Part shown: positions 5,879 to 14,807 of the stretch, piece after piece
Position numbering within the stretch: the stretch's first letter is position 1
Layout: every line of letters starts with the position of its first letter
Assembly (NCBI GenBank): GCA_026625625.1
Contig: CP113055.1
Coordinates: forward strand, 3,207,001-3,271,000
Direction: 5' to 3'
Length of the DNA stretch: 64,000 nt
Source of the DNA: Blastomonas sp. SL216
GTDB taxonomy: Bacteria > Pseudomonadota > Alphaproteobacteria > Sphingomonadales > Sphingomonadaceae
Notes under the pieces: generated by a model
Databases searched by the model: none
Told to the model about the DNA's origin: nothing
Seen by the model: only the letters and a program-made list of their open reading frames with translations
Position numbers and translations under genes: made by a program

Positions 5879-5896
5879 ATGTCATATATTTGTCAT
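5879..5896 (+). promoter_or_regulatory. Pho-box-like direct repeat upstream of the porin gene
   Basis: ATGTCAT (5879-5885) and TTGTCAT (5890-5896) are separated by four bases, an 11-bp period. This is the layout of a PhoB box (two CTGTCAT units, four-base spacer); each unit matches 6 of 7 bases. It points toward the OprO/P-type porin starting at 5948. A PhoB target here would mean induction in phosphate starvation. No clear -10 is seen at the expected distance. Confidence 0.6.
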
Positions 5897-5947
5897 AAAG
5901 GCCAGCCTCCGCCCGTCCGGCAAGGCTGGGCCGTATTGCTAAGGCGC

Positions 5948-7504: not shown

Positions 7505-8953
7505 ATGGCGCTGCACCGACTGGCGATGCTGATGGCGTTCGTGCCGGTGCTGCTGTTTTCCTCTGCCGAACGCGCCGCGACCGCGCCGCCGGTGCGGCTT
7601 GAGGCAGAGACGCTGCTGCCGAGCGAGAATGTCACCGTTGCGGGGAAATCCGCCAATCCTCCCGCCGGCATTCGCCGCGATGACCGCAGCTATCCGTTCT
7701 ACATGCCGATGCAGGGCCTGCGCCCCCCTGCGGTGACGCTGCGCATCCGCTGCGATGCCTCGCGCGCGGCGGGGCGCGAGGTCTATGCCGGACCATCAGC
7801 CGAATCGCTTTATGGCCGGGTCGAAGGCGGGTTCGAGTTCATCTACGAGGCTTATGACGGCGCAGGCAGGCCTTGCGTCTATCCCTTCTCGCCCTGGATG
7901 CCGCAGATTGTCGGCCAGACCCAGGGCACGCAATATGTCTTCCGCTCGTCGGTCCCCGGTGTGCCGGTCACCTTCCGCACCAATGATGCCTGGGCGACGA
8001 TCAACCTGAGGCTGTTCGATCTGGGGCCGCAGCGGGTGCATTTCGAGATGCGCGACATCGCGCTCGATTTCCCCAATGCGGGCGAATCCAAGGGCGCGGT
8101 GCATCTGGAGGTGCTGGGCGTCACCCGGCCCGGCCTGATCACGGCGGTGATCCGCAGGGCCAATATTTTCGGCGGCAAGAACGCAATCTTCGTGCCCGGC
8201 GGGGAGACGATGACCTATATCGAGGACAGCGTGATCCGCGGCAATGTCGGCGACAATGTCGATCAGGAACACGGCACCTATATCAACGGCACGCTGGTCA
8301 CCCATATCGTCAACAGCACCTGGTTCGGCCAGAAGGGCTGGATCGACGTGGCGAGCGGGCATCAGCTCAAGGACAAGGCCTATCTGCGCGTCTACGAGGA
8401 TGTGACCGTCGCCAATCTGCCGGGTGCGACCGTGCCCTCGGCCATGCCGCTGGTCGATATCTCCGCCTTCGGCTTTACCTGGGCCAACAACCTCAAGTTC
8501 AAGCGCGTGCCGCCCGCGCAGGACGTGCGCGATTCGCTGGTCGATCTGCGCACCGAGATTGTCTACGGCACGCCCGATCATTACCCGTGGAACATCATGG
8601 TCGATCCCGGCTGGCGGATGCCGCCCAACCCGCTGGGCGCGCTCGACCAGGTGTACCTGTCGGTCTTCCAGAACACCCTGGTCGACAGCTTCCGCGCCGA
8701 GCCCTATGTTTTCCGCCTCAACATGCAGGGCCTTGGGGTGGAGCCGGGCACGCCGACGGTGATCGGCAACGAACAGACAACACGGGCGCAGCAGCGCATG
8801 GTGTCGCTGGCGTTCAACACCAAGGGCACGATCCGCAAGGCCTATTCGCCCGAAGGCTGGACCTATGTCGATCCTGTCCTGCCGCCCGACGCGCAATGGG
8901 TGCGCAACCGCGATGCCTTTATCCGCCACGCGCTGGGGCTGATCGGCCGATAG
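7505..8953 (+). CDS. Secreted protein with predicted right-handed beta-helix
   Basis: A 482-residue exported protein of unknown function. The first ~25 residues are a signal peptide (LMAFVPVLLFSSAERAATA). Residues ~165-300 show the rhythm of a parallel beta-helix: repeated short strands with Asn/Gly turns, such as VIRRANIFGGKNAIFVPGGE and IEDSVIRGNVGDNVDQEHG. Such folds often bind or cut polysaccharides, but no catalytic motif is recognised. A GGGAGAGG ribosome site precedes the ATG. It lies 51 bases after the porin on the same strand, so co-transcription is plausible. It nearly touches the convergent regulator gene (one base between stops). Confidence 0.6.
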   Translation: MALHRLAMLMAFVPVLLFSSAERAATAPPVRLEAETLLPSENVTVAGKSANPPAGIRRDDRSYPFYMPMQGLRPPAVTLRIRCDASRAAGREVYAGPSAESLYGRVEGGFEFIYEAYDGAGRPCVYPFSPWMPQIVGQTQGTQYVFRSSVPGVPVTFRTNDAWATINLRLFDLGPQRVHFEMRDIALDFPNAGESKGAVHLEVLGVTRPGLITAVIRRANIFGGKNAIFVPGGETMTYIEDSVIRGNVGDNVDQEHGTYINGTLVTHIVNSTWFGQKGWIDVASGHQLKDKAYLRVYEDVTVANLPGATVPSAMPLVDISAFGFTWANNLKFKRVPPAQDVRDSLVDLRTEIVYGTPDHYPWNIMVDPGWRMPPNPLGALDQVYLSVFQNTLVDSFRAEPYVFRLNMQGLGVEPGTPTVIGNEQTTRAQQRMVSLAFNTKGTIRKAYSPEGWTYVDPVLPPDAQWVRNRDAFIRHALGLIGR

Positions 8954-8954
8954 G

Positions 8955-10307
8955 TCAGGCCTCGGGGCTGGTCAGCCGGTAGCCGATGGCCGGTTCGTTG
9001 AGGATCAGCGCGGGATGGGCGGGGTCACGCTCCAGCTTCTGGCGCAGCGCGCGGATGGCGACGCGCAGATAATCGATATTGTCCTGCTGCGCCGGGCCCC
9101 AGACGCTGCGCAGCAGATGGCTGTGCGACAAGACGCGCCCGGCATGCTTGGCCAGCTCCGCCAGCACGGCATATTCCTTGGGCGTCAGGTGGACCGGCTC
9201 GCCATCGCGCGCCACCAGACGGCGGTGCAGATCGACGCGCAAGGGGCCGATGGCGAGCGGTTCCTGTTCGGCGCCGGGGCTCAGATCGACCAGCCCGTCG
9301 ACATAACGGTCCAGATGCGCTGCTTCCGAGGCCACGGTCGCCGCCAGGCTCTTGTCGATTCCCGGCGTGCGGCGCAATGCGCGGCCTGCGGCCGAAATCG
9401 CGTTGAGCCGGGGCTTCACATCCTCGCCGATCGAGGTCAGCAAAGCCGTTCGCAACCGGTCGCGTTCGCGCAGCGCCGCCAGGTCCCGGGCCTCATCCTC
9501 CAGCCGCGCGCGGACCAGCGCCAGCGCCACCTGGTCGAGCAGGTTGCCGAGCAGCTGCGCCTGGCCCTCGCCGACCGGGGATGTGCCATCCTCGCGCGCA
9601 AGCCCGGCGGCGGCCAGCACCGCATCATCCGAACCGATACCGTGGAATTGCCAGTCAGTCAGCTTGGCCGGGCTGATGCCTCTTCCCGTCGGCTGGCCGG
9701 ACGTCAGCGTGATCGACGCGGCAGCAAAGTCTCCGGGGCTGAGGACGGCGTGCGGCGGCGCGGCGGCGATGATCCGCCCCTCGCCGTCGCGCTGCACGAC
9801 GATGACGGCCTGACAGGCGAACAGCAGGGAAAGCTGCTGCACCGCCACATCGCAGATCTGCTGCTCGCCGGTGCAGCTCAACAGCCGCCGGGCCAGCCCG
9901 GCAATCGTCGCGTTGCGCGCGGCATAGGCATCGGCGCGGTGGCTCTGTTCGCGGATCGAGGCGACGAGACGGCTGGTCACCACGGCCACCAGGAACAGCA
10001 CCGCCACCGTCATCACATCGGCGGGATTGCTGATCTGGAAGCTGTGATAGGGCTGCGTGAAATAGAAATTATAGGCGAGCGTGGAGAGCGTCGCCGCCGC
10101 CAGCGCGGGCCAAAGGCCCAACGCGAGTGCTGCAACCAGGACCGGCGGAATATAGAGCAATGCCACCGCGCCGCTGCCCCAGCGCGGCGCGATCAGCAGT
10201 CCGCCCAGCGTGGCCAGCGCGATCAGCACCAGCGCCGAGACATAGCCGCCCGCCTGTTTGCTGACGGTGTTGCGCGAGGATCGGGTCGGAAGATGGTCGT
10301 TCTGCAT
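8955..10307 (-). CDS. Membrane KdpD/KdpE-like fusion: DUF4118 + GAF + degenerate HisKA + winged helix
   Basis: A 450-residue one-component regulator. Residues ~20-125 match the four-helix DUF4118 membrane domain of KdpD (LLYIPPVLVAALALGLWPA, then NFYFTQPYHSFQISNPADV). Residues ~140-280 look like the KdpD GAF-like region. At ~286-345 ERDRLRTALLTSIGED aligns with the KdpD dimerisation helix, but the phospho-accepting His is Glu295. No HATPase domain follows; instead residues 349-450 are a KdpE/OmpR-type winged helix (HLTPKEYAVLAELAKHAGRV, SVWGPAQQDNIDYLRVAIRA, ending IGYRLTS). The KdpD N-terminal sensor and the KdpE receiver are both absent. It is divergent from kup, so potassium control is likely. 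ATG 10307 is preferred to 10391. Confidence 0.85.
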   Translation of the reverse strand: MQNDHLPTRSSRNTVSKQAGGYVSALVLIALATLGGLLIAPRWGSGAVALLYIPPVLVAALALGLWPALAAATLSTLAYNFYFTQPYHSFQISNPADVMTVAVLFLVAVVTSRLVASIREQSHRADAYAARNATIAGLARRLLSCTGEQQICDVAVQQLSLLFACQAVIVVQRDGEGRIIAAAPPHAVLSPGDFAAASITLTSGQPTGRGISPAKLTDWQFHGIGSDDAVLAAAGLAREDGTSPVGEGQAQLLGNLLDQVALALVRARLEDEARDLAALRERDRLRTALLTSIGEDVKPRLNAISAAGRALRRTPGIDKSLAATVASEAAHLDRYVDGLVDLSPGAEQEPLAIGPLRVDLHRRLVARDGEPVHLTPKEYAVLAELAKHAGRVLSHSHLLRSVWGPAQQDNIDYLRVAIRALRQKLERDPAHPALILNEPAIGYRLTSPEA

Positions 10308-10391
10308 GGCCTTCAAGATGCGCGCGGGGCGAGCCCGCGTCGAGGGGGGCAAGGTCAATCCACATGGAATCTTTATGCGGTTCGCGCCCAC

Positions 10392-12317
10392 ATGCAGGGG
10401 ATGGAAAACAGTCTGAATGCGTCACCCGCCGCCGATGCGGCCCCCGGCCATCATGGCCCCAAGGATCGCCTACCCGTGCTCATGCTCGGGGCGATCGGCG
10501 TGGTCTTTGGCGATATCGGCACCTCGCCGCTTTATGCCTTGAAAGAGAGCTTCATTGGCCCGCACCCGCTCAGCGTCGACCGGCTGCACATATTCGGCGT
10601 GCTCAGCCTGATCTTCTGGTCGCTGATGCTGATCGTCACGGTCAAATATGTGCTGGTGGCGATGCGCGCGGACAATCGCGGCGAGGGCGGATCGTTTGCG
10701 CTGCTCGCTCTGGTCTCGCGCAACCTGGGGGTCAGCCGCTGGAACGGGACGCTGGTGGTGCTCGGCGTGCTCGCCGCATCGATGTTCTATGGCGACGCGA
10801 TGCTCACCCCCGCCATGTCGGTGCTGTCCGCGGTCGAGGGGCTGACGCTCGTCCAGGCCAATCTCGCGCCGCTGGTCGTGCCGATCGCGGTGGTCATCCT
10901 GGTCGCGCTCTTCCTCATCCAGTCGCGCGGAACCGCGCGCGTCGGGGCGCTGTTCGGCCCGATCGTTCTGGTCTATTTCGCAACGCTGGCGACACTGGGC
11001 GTGGTCAATATCGTCCAGCAGCCGCAAGTGCTGGCGATCCTCAGCCCGCATTGGGCGTTCGAGTTCTTCCGTCACGATCCGCGGACCGCGTTTCTCGCCA
11101 TGGGCTCGGTCTTCCTGGCGGTCACGGGCGCAGAGACGCTCTATGCCGATATGGGCCATTTCGGTCGCAAGGCGGTGGGGTTGAGCTGGCTGACGCTGGT
11201 CTATCCCTGTCTGATGCTCAACTATATGGGCCAGGGCGCGCTGCTGCTCGGCAATCCGGCTGCGGTGGAAAACCCCTTCTATCTGATGGCCCCCGAATGG
11301 GCGCGGCTGCCGCTTGTGCTCATCGCGACTGCAGCGACGATCATCGCCAGCCAGGCGGTCATATCGGGCGCGTTCTCGGTGACGCATCAGGCGATTCAGC
11401 TCGGCTTCCTGCCGCGGCTGCGCACCTTGCACACCAGCGAGAAGGCGGCAGGCCAGATCTATATCCCCGCGATCAACTGGGGCCTGCTGGTGATGGTGCT
11501 CGTGCTGGTGCTGGGCTTTCGCGAATCGACGCGGCTGGCCTCGGCCTATGGCATCTCGGTGGTGGGAACGATGCTGATCACCACGGTGATGCTGGCCTTT
11601 CTGCTGTTCAAGGTCTGGCGCTGGAACCGCTGGCTGGCCGCAGCCACGATCGGCGCTTTCCTGGCGGTCGATGCCGTCTATTTCTTCTCGAACATCACCA
11701 AGATCCCCGATGGCGGCTGGTTCCCGCTGGTCGTCGCAGGCGCGCTGTTCACGGTGCTGACCACCTGGGCCAAGGGAAGGCGGCTGATGCACCAGGGGCT
11801 GGACGAGATCGCCATGCCGCTGGAGGTGTTCATCCGCTCATCGGTCGCCAGCGCGCACCGGGTGCGCAACACGGCGGTGTTCATGTCTGCCGCGCGCGAA
11901 GGTGTGCCGGCCGCGCTGCTGCACAATTTCAAGCACAACCAGGTGCTGCATGAGCGGATCCTGATCCTGACCGTGCTGGTGGAAGAGGTGCCCTATGCCG
12001 ATCCCGCCATGCGGCTGGAAAGCAGCGATGCGGGGCAGGGCTTCCACCGGGTCATCCTGCGCTATGGCTTCATGGAGGATGTCGATGTGCCGCGCGATCT
12101 GGCGGCGCTCGATGGCCCCGGCGGACCGTTCGACATGATGAAGACCAGCTTCTTCCTGGGGCGGCAGAAGCTGGTGGCGTCCGCCGACAAGCCGGGCATG
12201 GCCTTGTGGCGCGAACGGCTGTTCGCCTGGATGAGCCGCAGTTCCGAAAGTGCGATGGAATTCTTCCGCATCCCGACCAACCGCGTGGTCGAGCTGGGCA
12301 GCCAGGTGCAGATCTAG
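10392..12317 (+). CDS. kup: Potassium uptake protein Kup (TrkD)
   Basis: A 641-residue inner-membrane K+ transporter, close to the usual ~625. The N-terminal family signature GAIGVVFGDIGTSPLYALKE lies at ~residues 32-51, followed by about 12 membrane helices and a ~130-residue cytoplasmic tail. Conserved segments GEGGSFALLALVSR and MLTPAMSVLSAVEGL are present. Kup takes up K+, probably with protons. ATG codons at 10392 and 10401 are both possible. Divergent from the KdpD/KdpE-like fusion 84 bases away; its stop overlaps the ppsR stop in a shared CTAG. Confidence 0.95.
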   Translation: MQGMENSLNASPAADAAPGHHGPKDRLPVLMLGAIGVVFGDIGTSPLYALKESFIGPHPLSVDRLHIFGVLSLIFWSLMLIVTVKYVLVAMRADNRGEGGSFALLALVSRNLGVSRWNGTLVVLGVLAASMFYGDAMLTPAMSVLSAVEGLTLVQANLAPLVVPIAVVILVALFLIQSRGTARVGALFGPIVLVYFATLATLGVVNIVQQPQVLAILSPHWAFEFFRHDPRTAFLAMGSVFLAVTGAETLYADMGHFGRKAVGLSWLTLVYPCLMLNYMGQGALLLGNPAAVENPFYLMAPEWARLPLVLIATAATIIASQAVISGAFSVTHQAIQLGFLPRLRTLHTSEKAAGQIYIPAINWGLLVMVLVLVLGFRESTRLASAYGISVVGTMLITTVMLAFLLFKVWRWNRWLAAATIGAFLAVDAVYFFSNITKIPDGGWFPLVVAGALFTVLTTWAKGRRLMHQGLDEIAMPLEVFIRSSVASAHRVRNTAVFMSAAREGVPAALLHNFKHNQVLHERILILTVLVEEVPYADPAMRLESSDAGQGFHRVILRYGFMEDVDVPRDLAALDGPGGPFDMMKTSFFLGRQKLVASADKPGMALWRERLFAWMSRSSESAMEFFRIPTNRVVELGSQVQI

Positions 12318-13744
12318 CTCAGCTCGTCCTTGCGGCCGATCAGATTGCCCAGACCATGCCGGTGGAGCTTCGAATAGAGGCTCTGCCGGCTGAGCCCCAG
12401 GATTTCGGCAGCAGAGGCGCGGTTGTCCGAGGTATAGGCCAAAGCCGCCTCGATGCACATGCGCTCGATCAGGTCGGTTGATTCGCGCACGATCTCGCGC
12501 AGCGGCATGCGACCGACCAGCTCGGTCAGCTGGTCGACCGAGCGTGGAACGTCGCGGTCGGCGGCGGGCAGGTCGCGGACCCGGCGGCTGACGGTGCGGA
12601 TGGCAAAGCCGTAATGGCCGCCCTGCGCATCGGTCTTCACGCCGGATACCTCGATCGCCTCCTCGATCGCGTCATCGGCATGGACGATGGTGGTGGCATT
12701 GCGTACCTGGCCGTGATCGTCGAGCTGCTTGCGCATCAGATCGACATCGATACCGGGCCGTCCGATGAAGCGACCGAGCGGCTGGCCGGTGATCGCTTCC
12801 TTCGAGCTGCCATGGACCAGATCGACAAAGGCCGAATTGGCGGTGAGGATCTGCATCTTCGAATCGGTCAGCACAAAGGCATCGGGCATGCGCTCGATCA
12901 GTTCGGCCATCGGGCGGCGTCCGCCGGAATCGGCCACCGCCGCATCGCCGCGCGAGAGGCGGATCATGAACTGGCGGCCATTGTCCTGACGGAACGGCAT
13001 CGCGGTCAGCACCATCGGCGGATCGCCTTCGCCGACATTCACTTCCATCTCGCAATGTTCGCCGGTCGCGGTTGCTCCGCCGAGCGCCGCGATCAGATCA
13101 TCGCGGGAAATGCCGCCGATGACGTTGGCGAGGTCGCGATTGTCGAGGCTGCCGGGCTTGGCATCGAACAACTGGTAGCTTGCCGGGTTGGCAGCGGCAA
13201 TGCGGCGGGTGGTCGCATCGATGATCAGCACCGGATCGGCGATCATGTCGAACAGCAGGCGAAAGCGTGCCTCGGTCTGGCGCAGCTTCAGGTAATCGCG
13301 TTCCAGCGATTGCTGGGTCTGCAACAGGCGCTGCTGCAGGCTGGCCCAGGCGCGCACATCGCGGCCAATCGCCATGCGCGGCTTGCCTTCGCCCAGATCG
13401 ACCAGACGGTAATGGATCGGCAGATTGCCATCGGGACCGGGATGGTTGACCTGGCGCCAGCGCCCCGGCGTTTCCGAAGACGGGGAGGACAGCATCTCGC
13501 TGATCTTGGGACGGCTGTCGAGCGCAACCGTATCCTCCCAGCGCCGGCCTATCCAGCCGCTGAGGTCAGGCATGTCATCCGCACTCACGGAAACATCGCT
13601 GATGACGCCATTTTCGTCGAGCGCCAGGGCGATATCGCCTGCGGCTAGCACCAATGCGAGTGCTGCGCCGATTTCAAGAGTACCGACAACGCCTTTGAGG
13701 TCGCGAAAAGGCATAGCAACAGCTGAAGGCTCGTCCTTGTTCAT
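12314..13744 (-). CDS. ppsR: Transcriptional regulator PpsR (CrtJ)
   Basis: A 476-residue repressor of photosynthesis genes under oxygen and light. The layout is an N-terminal PAS-like region (~20-135), a linker coiled coil (~136-160), PAS domains at ~161-270 and ~285-400, and a Fis-type helix-turn-helix (ASAAEILGLSRQSLYSKLHR, ~443-462). There are exactly two cysteines, Cys231 and Cys430; the second lies just before the DNA-binding helices, as Cys420 does in CrtJ, so a redox switch is possible. It follows ppaA by 19 bases. Its expected operators are the TGT-N12-ACA boxes in this window. Confidence 0.95.
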   Translation of the reverse strand: MNKDEPSAVAMPFRDLKGVVGTLEIGAALALVLAAGDIALALDENGVISDVSVSADDMPDLSGWIGRRWEDTVALDSRPKISEMLSSPSSETPGRWRQVNHPGPDGNLPIHYRLVDLGEGKPRMAIGRDVRAWASLQQRLLQTQQSLERDYLKLRQTEARFRLLFDMIADPVLIIDATTRRIAAANPASYQLFDAKPGSLDNRDLANVIGGISRDDLIAALGGATATGEHCEMEVNVGEGDPPMVLTAMPFRQDNGRQFMIRLSRGDAAVADSGGRRPMAELIERMPDAFVLTDSKMQILTANSAFVDLVHGSSKEAITGQPLGRFIGRPGIDVDLMRKQLDDHGQVRNATTIVHADDAIEEAIEVSGVKTDAQGGHYGFAIRTVSRRVRDLPAADRDVPRSVDQLTELVGRMPLREIVRESTDLIERMCIEAALAYTSDNRASAAEILGLSRQSLYSKLHRHGLGNLIGRKDELS

Positions 13745-13763
13745 GCCGCGCCGGGTGCGGTCT

Positions 13764-14807
13764 TCAAAGCGAAAGCGCGGTGCGCTCTACCCCGGCAGAT
13801 ACAAGTTCATCGGCCAATGCAAGCGCGTCAGCCGCATCAGCAGCGGTTCCGTCCGCACCCAGCTTGCGCGCGTGTTCGGGGTCGTAGCCAAGCGCCGGAC
13901 CGCCGATCATGATTGCCAGTTTGGGATTGCAGGACACGCTTCTCATCGCCGTCAGCAGTTTCGGAACCTGCGCGATATAAAAGTCAGTGGTTACTGTCAA
14001 TCCGAGGATATCAAAGGATGAAGATCCCAGTGTCTGCAGTATTTCGGACTGATCCGGCTCAACCAAAGTCTTCACATCCCAGCCAGCACGCTGAAAACAT
14101 TCCGAAATAATCAAAGTACCCAGGCTGTGCTGGTCACCCGGCATGGTCGTGAACAGTGCACGGTGCGTCCGCAGCGTCCAGCCGACAGCAGGCGGGGCCC
14201 ATACCGCTATGGTGCGCAAAAGCAGTTGCAGCCGCCAAAGCCCCATGGTGACATCGACAAAATCGCATTCGTCGCGGTTCCATTTGTCGCCGAGCTCGCG
14301 CGCGGTGGGGGCGATCAGCTGGATGAACAAAGTTTCCGGTGCAACCTGCCGGTCCAGATGGCCGATGATAATATCGGCCAGCGCGTTGACCTCATGCGCC
14401 AGAACCTGGTCGGCAAATGCGCGGATCGCCGCTTCGTCAAACAGCGGTGCCATGGTCGACAGGCGACTGGCGGCCGCCGCGCCGCGCTGATTGTCGTTGG
14501 ATTGGGTTCCGGACGTTTCGCGGAACCCCTCGCCGCCTTCCGGCGCCCGCATGGCGGCAGTCACCATATGGGCTGGGGGGTCGACGGGGAAATGCGCCAT
14601 GCGTGGATCATCCTGATGCACCATCAGCAGCCGGGGGATGATCTCATCCTCCACCAACCGACCGACATCGTCATTGGGCGCGTGACTAAAGAACCGGCCA
14701 TGACCGGTCTGTTCGCCATCCCAGGGCGACGCCTTCTTGCGCAAACGCGCATTACGAAACAGCTCTGTCGTCGACCTGATTAAATCGATTCCAAAAACCG
14801 AGGCCAT
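13764..14807 (-). CDS. ppaA: B12-binding photoreceptor/antirepressor PpaA (AerR)
   Basis: A 347-residue cobalamin-binding regulator. Residues ~120-210 form the helical cap (IIIGHLDRQVAPETLFIQLI, GDKWNRDECDFVDVTMG). The B12 motif DxHxxG is exact in PGDQHSLG (Asp225, His227, Gly230). The rest is a Rossmann-like domain ending with MIGGPALGYDPEHARKLGAD. In Rhodobacter AerR/PpaA senses light through B12 and modifies CrtJ/PpsR activity. The N-terminal ~110 residues are an extension with no recognised domain. AGGAGAG precedes the ATG. First gene of the ppaA-ppsR operon, divergent from bchF across a region with several PpsR-type boxes. Confidence 0.92.
   Translation of the reverse strand: MASVFGIDLIRSTTELFRNARLRKKASPWDGEQTGHGRFFSHAPNDDVGRLVEDEIIPRLLMVHQDDPRMAHFPVDPPAHMVTAAMRAPEGGEGFRETSGTQSNDNQRGAAAASRLSTMAPLFDEAAIRAFADQVLAHEVNALADIIIGHLDRQVAPETLFIQLIAPTARELGDKWNRDECDFVDVTMGLWRLQLLLRTIAVWAPPAVGWTLRTHRALFTTMPGDQHSLGTLIISECFQRAGWDVKTLVEPDQSEILQTLGSSSFDILGLTVTTDFYIAQVPKLLTAMRSVSCNPKLAIMIGGPALGYDPEHARKLGADGTAADAADALALADELVSAGVERTALSL

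What the first reader, a model, noticed from the sequence alone, without database searches (positions are those of the whole stretch)
8955..12317. Membrane-tethered KdpD/KdpE fusion without kinase or receiver, divergent from kup
The 450-residue protein joins the KdpD DUF4118 membrane domain, a GAF-like region and a dimerisation helix whose phospho-acceptor His is replaced by Glu295 directly to a KdpE-type winged helix. Both the HATPase and the receiver domain are missing, so phosphotransfer should be impossible. It would be a one-component, membrane-bound regulator that senses K+ or turgor and binds DNA directly. The K+ transporter kup is divergent 84 bases away, a natural target. I know of no characterised example of this layout.
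Basis: partly seen in the sequence, partly recalled or inferred. Interest (0 to 1): 0.75.

Follow-up and report, generated by a model that had tools for sequence, protein, structure and literature searches.

The report
Kinase-free potassium sensor-regulator fusion beside kup
A bacterial potassium sensor and the DNA-binding end of its partner have merged into one membrane protein with no phosphate-relay parts, and it sits next to a potassium-uptake gene whose promoter carries a matching, almost unchanging DNA site, so it probably controls that gene directly.

Summary
One 450-residue ORF (8955-10307, -) joins KdpD's DUF4118 membrane domain, GAF domain and a dimerisation hairpin lacking the phospho-acceptor His directly to a KdpE winged helix. 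It is not a sequencing error: 24 distinct proteins, own included, in 16 genera of one Sphingomonadales family (22 of 397 genomes; two more). None of the 24 keeps the His, all 24 lie divergent from kup, and the domains are under purifying selection. They form one clade; in the sensor tree an intact short KdpD, also divergent from kup, joins them. New here is a 22-bp site between the two genes in all 24: two 11-bp direct repeats with the 6-5-6 layout of E. coli KdpE sites, 21-24 bp before the kup ATG in 23. A weight matrix from seven kdpFABC promoters ranks it first of 127,958 window positions. Copies with at most one mismatch occur in 19 of 22 fusion genomes and 0 of 375 others. Best reading: a two-component system became a dedicated one-component, membrane-bound regulator of one kup paralogue. 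K+ sensing, binding and activation are inferred. Such regulators are a known kind (e.g. Rsp); this family is a new variant.

The parts
8955..10307 (-). gene of the KdpD/KdpE fusion regulator, 450 aa, stop included
9933..10244 (-). DUF4118 four-helix membrane domain, residues 22-125
   Evidence: Pfam; 2ksf KdpD membrane-domain match E 7.5e-7; helices in model
9570..9920 (-). GAF domain, about residues 130-246 (limits approximate)
   Evidence: Foldseek 4y2f/4qpr KdpD GAF, TM 0.79-0.80 on target length; not found by Pfam
9288..9569 (-). DHp-type two-helix hairpin, about residues 247-340, without phospho-acceptor His
   Evidence: helices 247-313 and 319-340 in model; dN/dS 0.07-0.17 in the six of seven pairs where it could be computed
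9423..9425 (-). Glu295 codon at the position of the KdpD phospho-acceptor His
   Evidence: alignment, 0 of 24 His; intact relative in L058 reads SVGHDLRTPL
8973..9251 (-). KdpE-type winged helix, residues 353-445; R415 and R422 match KdpE DNA-contact residues R193 and R200
10339..10344 (-). putative -35 (CTCGAC) of the fusion gene; same hexamer within 45 bp of the ATG in 23 of 24 loci
   Evidence: assignment as promoter inferred
10316..10321 (-). putative -10 (GCATCT) of the fusion gene, 17 bp after the -35 and 8 nt before ATG (leaderless start inferred)
10357..10378 (+). candidate operator AATCCACATGG|AATCTTTATGC, two 11-bp direct repeats (7 of 11 bases shared)
10389..10390 (+). CA invariant in 24 of 24, 10-11 bp downstream of the operator; part of a putative kup -10
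10401..12317 (+). kup (second paralogue), K+ transporter; first codon at 10401 preferred, 10392 possible

Best explanation
The gene encodes a membrane-bound one-component transcription regulator that arose once, most simply by an internal loss of the ATPase and receiver domains from a short kdpD-kdpE pair already lying divergent from kup. The DUF4118 membrane domain and the GAF domain, where the K+-sensing sites of KdpD are placed in the literature, are kept as the input. The former DHp hairpin is kept as a dimeric mechanical relay, no longer a phospho-acceptor. The KdpE winged helix is held at the membrane as a dimer and binds the two 11-bp direct repeats at 10357-10378 just upstream of kup. 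At low K+ the sensor places the two winged helices on the repeats and recruits RNA polymerase to kup; at sufficient K+ it does not. Shown by sequence: architecture, His loss, monophyly, selection, kup linkage, and a conserved KdpE-like site. Inferred: dimerisation, K+ as signal, direct binding, and sign of regulation (activation more likely than repression, because the site lies about 10 bp upstream of a weak -10-like element and no -35 is conserved).
For: Domains and fold. His lost in 24 of 24. kup adjacent and divergent in 24 of 24. Fusions one clade, 100/100 (sensor) and 99/95 (winged helix); L058, an intact short KdpD divergent from kup, joins them at 96/90 in the sensor tree. Purifying selection in membrane, GAF, DHp and winged-helix parts (dN/dS 0.04-0.37 in 7 pairs). 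22-bp site in 24 of 24. Unique in own genome at <=3 mismatches. Copies with <=1 mismatch: 19 of 22 fusion genomes, 0 of 375 others, all 19 at this locus. Matrix from 7 kdpFABC promoters ranks it first of 127,958. Best matrix hit just upstream of kup in 4 of 4 kup-kdpDE loci. 9 of 9 core kup loci lack a comparable site (best 5.5-12.5 bits against 22.2). KdpE R193/R200 conserved. K+ sensing placed in TM and GAF domains of KdpD: PMC11018627 passages. A regulator acting unphosphorylated on a kdp promoter is reported in Deinococcus radiodurans: PMC5716572 passage.
Against: No binding, expression or K+ response data. The upstream half-site (CACATG) departs from the kdpFABC half-sites and gives only 4.9 of the 22.2 bits, so specificity may have shifted. 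The site also contains an inverted repeat TTCCA-TG-TGGA(A/T) that an unrelated dimeric factor could read. In the winged-helix tree L058's KdpE is not the sister of the fusions, and in the kup tree L058's kup is unresolved, so the before-state rests on the sensor tree and on gene order. Only 2 of the 9 sampled genomes of the own genus carry the fusion. One kup (G204) is very divergent (54%). Isolated E. coli KdpE DNA-binding domain bound its site but did not promote expression in vivo (abstract of PMC3264566). Nothing in the sequence shows that K+ is the ligand.
Confidence: 0.68

Rival explanations
1. The fusion is a repressor of kup: apo-protein sits on the site and is released at low K+.
For: The closest characterised precedent, Rsp, represses its target (PMC10269533). 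The TTTATG half-site could itself be read as a -10, in which case binding would occlude the promoter.
Against: KdpE sites before kdpFABC are activator sites in E. coli; the CA invariant in 24 of 24, 10-11 bp downstream of the site, fits a -10 downstream of an activator site; no -35 is conserved.
Confidence: 0.2
2. The signal is not K+ itself but the Kup transporter: the membrane domain contacts Kup and is released when Kup transports, as LysP works with CadC.
For: kup and fusion lie together in 24 of 24 loci, and the two trees share several groups by eye (congruence not tested); LysP-CadC is the model (PMC5936718 passages).
Against: A divergent layout with a shared promoter region is enough to explain the linkage. 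G204 has a very different Kup.
Confidence: 0.15
3. A decaying kdpDE remnant with no function.
For: Kinase and receiver are gone, and 375 of 397 family genomes lack the gene.
Against: 24 homologues over 16 genera, dN/dS well under 1 in every domain (only the 12-codon link is erratic, up to 1.1 in one pair), conserved DNA-contact residues, near-invariant site.
Confidence: 0.02
4. The fusion is regulated by phosphorylation from another kinase, or by regulated proteolysis releasing the winged helix.
For: Cleavage had been proposed for CadC (reference title).
Against: No receiver and no acceptor His remain; the His position is E, Q, D, T, R or A. The same review states that CadC does not need cleavage. 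Cleavage is not testable here.
Confidence: 0.08

Closest known systems
KdpD/KdpE two-component system
   Same: DUF4118 membrane domain, GAF domain, DHp helices and KdpE winged helix are homologous, in the same order; the DNA site has the same 6-5-6 direct-repeat layout (PMC3264566 passages).
   Different: One polypeptide; no KdpD/Usp domain, no CA domain, no receiver, no acceptor His; linked to kup, not kdpFABC (KdpA found in only 2 of 24 fusion genomes).
Rsp of Neisseria gonorrhoeae (PilS receptor + PilR DNA-binding domain)
   Same: Sensor-kinase membrane receptor fused to the response regulator's DNA-binding domain (PMC10269533).
   Different: Unrelated families; here a clade of 24 with a conserved candidate operator and an intact relative at a like locus.
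ToxR/CadC-type membrane one-component regulators
   Same: Winged helix acting from the membrane without a phospho-acceptor domain (PMC5936718 passages).
   Different: Those are bitopic with an N-terminal winged helix and a periplasmic sensor; here a four-helix membrane domain, cytoplasmic GAF and DHp, and a C-terminal winged helix.
KdpD variants lacking the HK part (PMC11018627 survey of 5495 species)
   Same: KdpD proteins that have lost kinase function.
   Different: Those described keep the N-terminal ASK domain, and no DNA-binding domain is mentioned; the survey covers only species with an annotated Kdp pump (section 8 read; no occurrence of 'DNA-binding' in the main text).

Membership tests
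KdpD histidine kinase | DUF4118 four-helix membrane domain | tested here: met
   Pfam E 4e-27
KdpD histidine kinase | phospho-acceptor His in DHp | tested here: not met
   0 of 24
KdpD histidine kinase | HATPase_c catalytic domain | tested here: not met
   no Pfam match at E<=1; no such segment in the model
KdpD histidine kinase | N-terminal KdpD/Usp domains | tested here: not met
   the first helix of the model begins at residue 13; no such Pfam match
KdpE/OmpR-PhoB response regulator | winged helix with KdpE DNA-contact residues | tested here: met
   R415, R422 invariant in the 23 aligned; T215 of KdpE is N437
KdpE/OmpR-PhoB response regulator | receiver domain | tested here: not met
   no Response_reg at E<=1
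Transmembrane transcription regulator (TTR) | transmembrane region plus DNA-binding domain in one protein | tested here: met
   DUF4118 + Trans_reg_C; definition from PMC10269533
Transmembrane transcription regulator (TTR) | regulates transcription from the membrane | not testable with these tools
   candidate operator only
ToxR/CadC family | single-pass, N-terminal winged helix, periplasmic sensor | tested here: not met
   C-terminal winged helix, DUF4118 membrane domain

The most novel reading that the evidence does not exclude
The first one-component K+ sensor-regulator known: a phosphorelay turned into a phosphate-free switch in one evolutionary step, in which K+ binding at the membrane and GAF domains is passed mechanically through a dead DHp hairpin to KdpE winged helices that read a single operator in the genome and drive one dedicated Kup paralogue, possibly with Kup itself as co-sensor.
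Probability: 0.55. Interest if true: 0.82.

Novelty: new variant of a known kind. Interest (0 to 1): 0.72.

Why it matters
It offers a likely before-and-after pair (intact kdpDE divergent from kup in G003; fused form in 24 relatives) for how a two-component system collapses into a one-component regulator while keeping its neighbour gene and its type of DNA site. It makes an old question about KdpD testable: whether the membrane and GAF domains alone can sense K+ and pass the signal without phosphotransfer. It also predicts a K+-regulated kup, whereas in E. coli Kup is described as constitutive (PMC5458449 passages), with what looks like a single-operator regulon that is simple to test.

Tried and rejected
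Sequencing error or split pair: rejected (24 distinct homologues). Pseudogene: rejected. Fusion outside the family: of 385 genomes of the class only the window's own has it (threshold 1e-40; two others match as long KdpD-like frames); of 296 of the order 12 match at 1e-65, all in the same family. The genome-contig scan (close relatives only) gave 13 loci, 2 of them full-length, L004 and L005; their proteins equal those of G281 and G242 (compared from residue 21) and were not counted again. G200's protein holds a run of N and was left out of the 23-row alignment used for folding.

Does the fusion replace Kdp? KdpA in 2 of 24 fusion genomes against 38 of 141 non-fusion genomes of the 149 sampled: Fisher p 0.07 before any correction for kinship, so not claimed.

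Other targets: in 397 genomes (21-base pattern) sites off this locus are one with 2 mismatches (a second site in G242) and eight with 3 (G246, G082, G291, G222, a second one in G274, G311, G150, G201). I looked at eight of these nine, not G082 (genes named by eye, no family search). G242's lies between what look like an SPFH-type and a CitE-like gene; G150 and G201, of the same genus, have similar sites but no fusion. G246 and G311 have kdp-like genes nearby. I treat these as chance or lineage leftovers. At this locus 21 of 22 fusion genomes have the site at <=3 mismatches; G200's has 4 in the 22-bp count. The reversed-pattern control is 0 in every one of the 397 rows.

The pattern YTTAYG-N5-YTTAYG (run with T or A at the second base of each half) was drawn up after looking at the four kup-kdpDE loci, so their pattern hits are not independent; the kdpFABC promoters are a separate set (7 of 20 with a hit, expected 0.02; the other 13 have best matrix scores of 0.4-16.7 bits). 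The 7 matrix boxes were chosen by that pattern; no fusion site is in the matrix. KdpA-upstream regions were taken from 20 of the 38 genomes with KdpA.

The own genome's two other DUF4118 proteins are a 362-aa and a 546-aa kinase-like protein (read by eye), neither with the KdpD layout. DHp dN/dS could not be computed for one of 7 pairs (saturated). The 13-bp distance of the site from the fusion ATG in L077 probably reflects a wrong start chosen there; the other 23 span 48-85 bp.

Papers: 10 searches, several with capped lists (20 of 121, 20 of 67, 15 of 277, 12 of 19, 10 of 12 shown), showed by title and abstract start no paper on a KdpD-KdpE fusion or a kup-linked DUF4118 regulator; most subscription papers and all preprints are outside that library. 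Seen: PMC10269533 abstract, section 3, and section 4 part 1 of 2; PMC11018627 passages and section 8; PMC3264566, PMC5936718, PMC5716572, PMC8552747, PMC5458449 passages only.
Full report
What is there. The ORF 10307-8955 (-) gives 450 residues. DUF4118 covers residues 22-125 and Trans_reg_C 369-445; no kinase or receiver domain is found at E<=1. NCBIfam's KdpD model matches residues 8-309 and its KdpE model residues 352-445. An AlphaFold model from 23 homologues (mean pLDDT 83.6, pTM 0.51) shows membrane helices, an alpha/beta domain, a two-helix hairpin (247-313, 319-340), a poorly ordered link (342-347) and a winged helix. Foldseek matches the alpha/beta part to the GAF domain of E. coli KdpD (4y2f, 4qpr; TM 0.79-0.80 on the target) and the end to the KdpE DNA-binding domain (3zq7, TM 0.90). 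The low pTM means the arrangement between domains is not reliable, and no dimer was modelled.

The His is gone in the whole family. In the protein LRTALLTSIGEDVKPRL replaces the LRGALLSSVGHDLRTPL of the intact relative in L058. Of 24 distinct homologues, own included, 12 have Glu there, 6 Gln, 3 Asp, and 1 each Thr, Arg and Ala; none has His. Glu is therefore not a fixed phospho-mimic. The hairpin is still under strong selection (dN/dS 0.07-0.17 in the six of seven pairs where it could be computed), as are the membrane (0.04-0.25), GAF (0.08-0.37) and winged-helix (0.06-0.13) parts; only the 12-codon link is erratic (up to 1.1 in one pair).

Distribution. 22 of 397 genomes of the family carry it, in 15 of 96 genera (E<=1e-70); a sample of the order gave 12 of 296, all in this family and two of them new. 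That makes 24 distinct proteins in 16 genera. Within the own genus 2 of 9 sampled genomes have it. In a class-wide sample of 385, only the window's own genome has it. Named members are Sphingomonas sp. 35-24ZXX and Sphingosinicella microcystinivorans, the latter in the Sphingomonadales. Trees (midpoint root): the 24 sensor parts form one clade (100/100), joined by the short KdpD of L058/G003 (96/90); the winged helices form one clade too (99/95), but there L058's KdpE is not their sister.

The likely before-state. In G003 (L058) kup (64% identical) lies divergent from a 508-residue DUF4118 kinase with intact His, whose gene overlaps that of a 224-residue KdpE. The fusion is what one gets if the stretch from the end of the second DHp helix to the KdpE linker is lost in frame (inference). 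Three other genomes (G035, G127, G075) carry kup-kdpD-kdpE in one direction.

kup. All 24 fusions have kup divergent and adjacent. It is a second paralogue: each of the eight fusion genomes of the 149-genome sample also has a core kup at 57-64% identity. Fusion-linked kups form one clade (96/99, 23 rows) except G204's, a divergent transporter on a very long branch; the nine core kups examined form another (90/86); L058's kup is unresolved between them.

The operator. Every one of the 24 intergenic regions holds a 22-bp block, AATCCACATGGAATCTTTATGC read towards kup: 11 exact, 8 with one mismatch, 2 with two, 2 with three, 1 with four. Information is 1.2-2.0 bits per base inside and 0.33 and 0.38 bits at the two flanking bases. 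It lies 21-24 bp from an in-frame kup ATG in 23 of 24 (L068 has none there), but at 48-85 bp from the fusion ATG (13 in L077, where the start chosen is doubtful), so it goes with the kup promoter. It splits into two 11-bp direct repeats sharing 7 of 11 bases, with hexamers CACATG and TTTATG 5 bp apart, the layout reported for E. coli KdpE (TTTATA-5-TTTACA, PMC3264566). KdpE residues R193 and R200, important there, correspond to R415 and R422, invariant in the 23 aligned homologues; T215 is Asn437 here (numbering offset worked out by me).

Specificity tests. A 21-base form of the site is unique in the 3.86-Mb genome at up to 3 mismatches. Across 397 genomes, all 19 copies with at most one mismatch lie at this locus, in 19 of 22 fusion genomes and 0 of 375 others (Fisher p 1e-29, kinship ignored). 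A weight matrix made from seven kdpFABC promoters of the family, with no fusion site in it, puts this site first of 127,958 positions in the window (22.2 bits; next 17.6), and its top site in each of the four kup-kdpDE loci lies just upstream of kup. Of the 22.2 bits only 4.9 come from the upstream half-site. The nine core kup loci have nothing comparable (5.5-12.5 bits).

Promoter reading (inferred). A CA dinucleotide at +10/+11 from the site is invariant in 24 of 24, where a -10 element would lie if the site acts as an activator box replacing a -35. With ATG 22 bp from the site the kup transcript would be nearly leaderless. The fusion gene has CTCGAC upstream in 23 of 24, here 17 bp before GCATCT, which lies 8 nt before ATG, again a leaderless pattern.

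Signal (inferred). In E. coli KdpD, K+ is taken to act at the membrane and GAF domains (PMC11018627 passages). Those two domains are what the fusion keeps; the ATP-binding KdpD/Usp and CA parts are what it lacks. 22 of 24 fusion genomes lack KdpA, so a regulated Kup may be their answer to low K+; the trend against 38 of 141 is not significant.

Place among known systems. It meets the definition of a transmembrane transcription regulator (PMC10269533). It is not a member of KdpD, KdpE or the ToxR family, failing defining features of each. The nearest precedent in kind is Rsp. A survey of KdpD versions in 5495 species (PMC11018627, section 8) describes kinase-less forms, but only in species with a Kdp pump, and the words DNA-binding, winged and one-component do not occur in its main text. 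On checking, my confidence in the full mechanism was lowered slightly (0.70 to 0.68), because the before-state rests on the sensor tree and gene order alone.

Noticed in passing
window 5880-5897, +: TGTCATATATTTGTCATA, a PhoB-box-like direct repeat (consensus recalled), just upstream of the likely start (5948 or 5954) of a phosphate-selective porin O/P gene; the region is the second best hit of the KdpE-type matrix.
   Followed up: partly
window 7505-8953, +: 482-aa protein without any Pfam match at E<=1, found beside the fusion gene also in the same-genus genome G281 (L062, same locus as L004; 83% identical).
   Followed up: no
window 12314-14807, -: PAS/Fis-type regulator and B12-binding protein, which look like ppsR and ppaA/aerR at the edge of a photosynthesis gene cluster (names recalled); the same order is kept in L004.
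   Followed up: no
L059:3859-5124 and L060:4792-6135: DUF4118-GAF proteins of 421 and 447 aa with a Usp-like N-terminus (by eye) that end before any DHp or kinase, sister to each other in the sensor tree: another kinase-less KdpD form, without DNA-binding domain.
   Followed up: partly
L055, L056, L057 (G035, G127, G075): kup-kdpD(short)-kdpE in one direction with a KdpE-type direct repeat upstream of kup: kup may be a KdpDE target in intact systems as well.
   Followed up: yes
L087, L089, L090, L091, L094, L100, L104: Regions upstream of kdpA in the family carry YTTAYG-N5-YTTAYG-like sites (7 of 20), a likely KdpE site consensus for this family.
   Followed up: partly
L066 (G204): Fusion paired with a very divergent Kup (54%) while a diverged version of the operator is kept.
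   Followed up: no
L054:5204-7607 (G007): kdpD- and kdpE-like stretches lying in different frames in a genome of 86% completeness and 7% contamination, probably sequencing errors.
   Followed up: no
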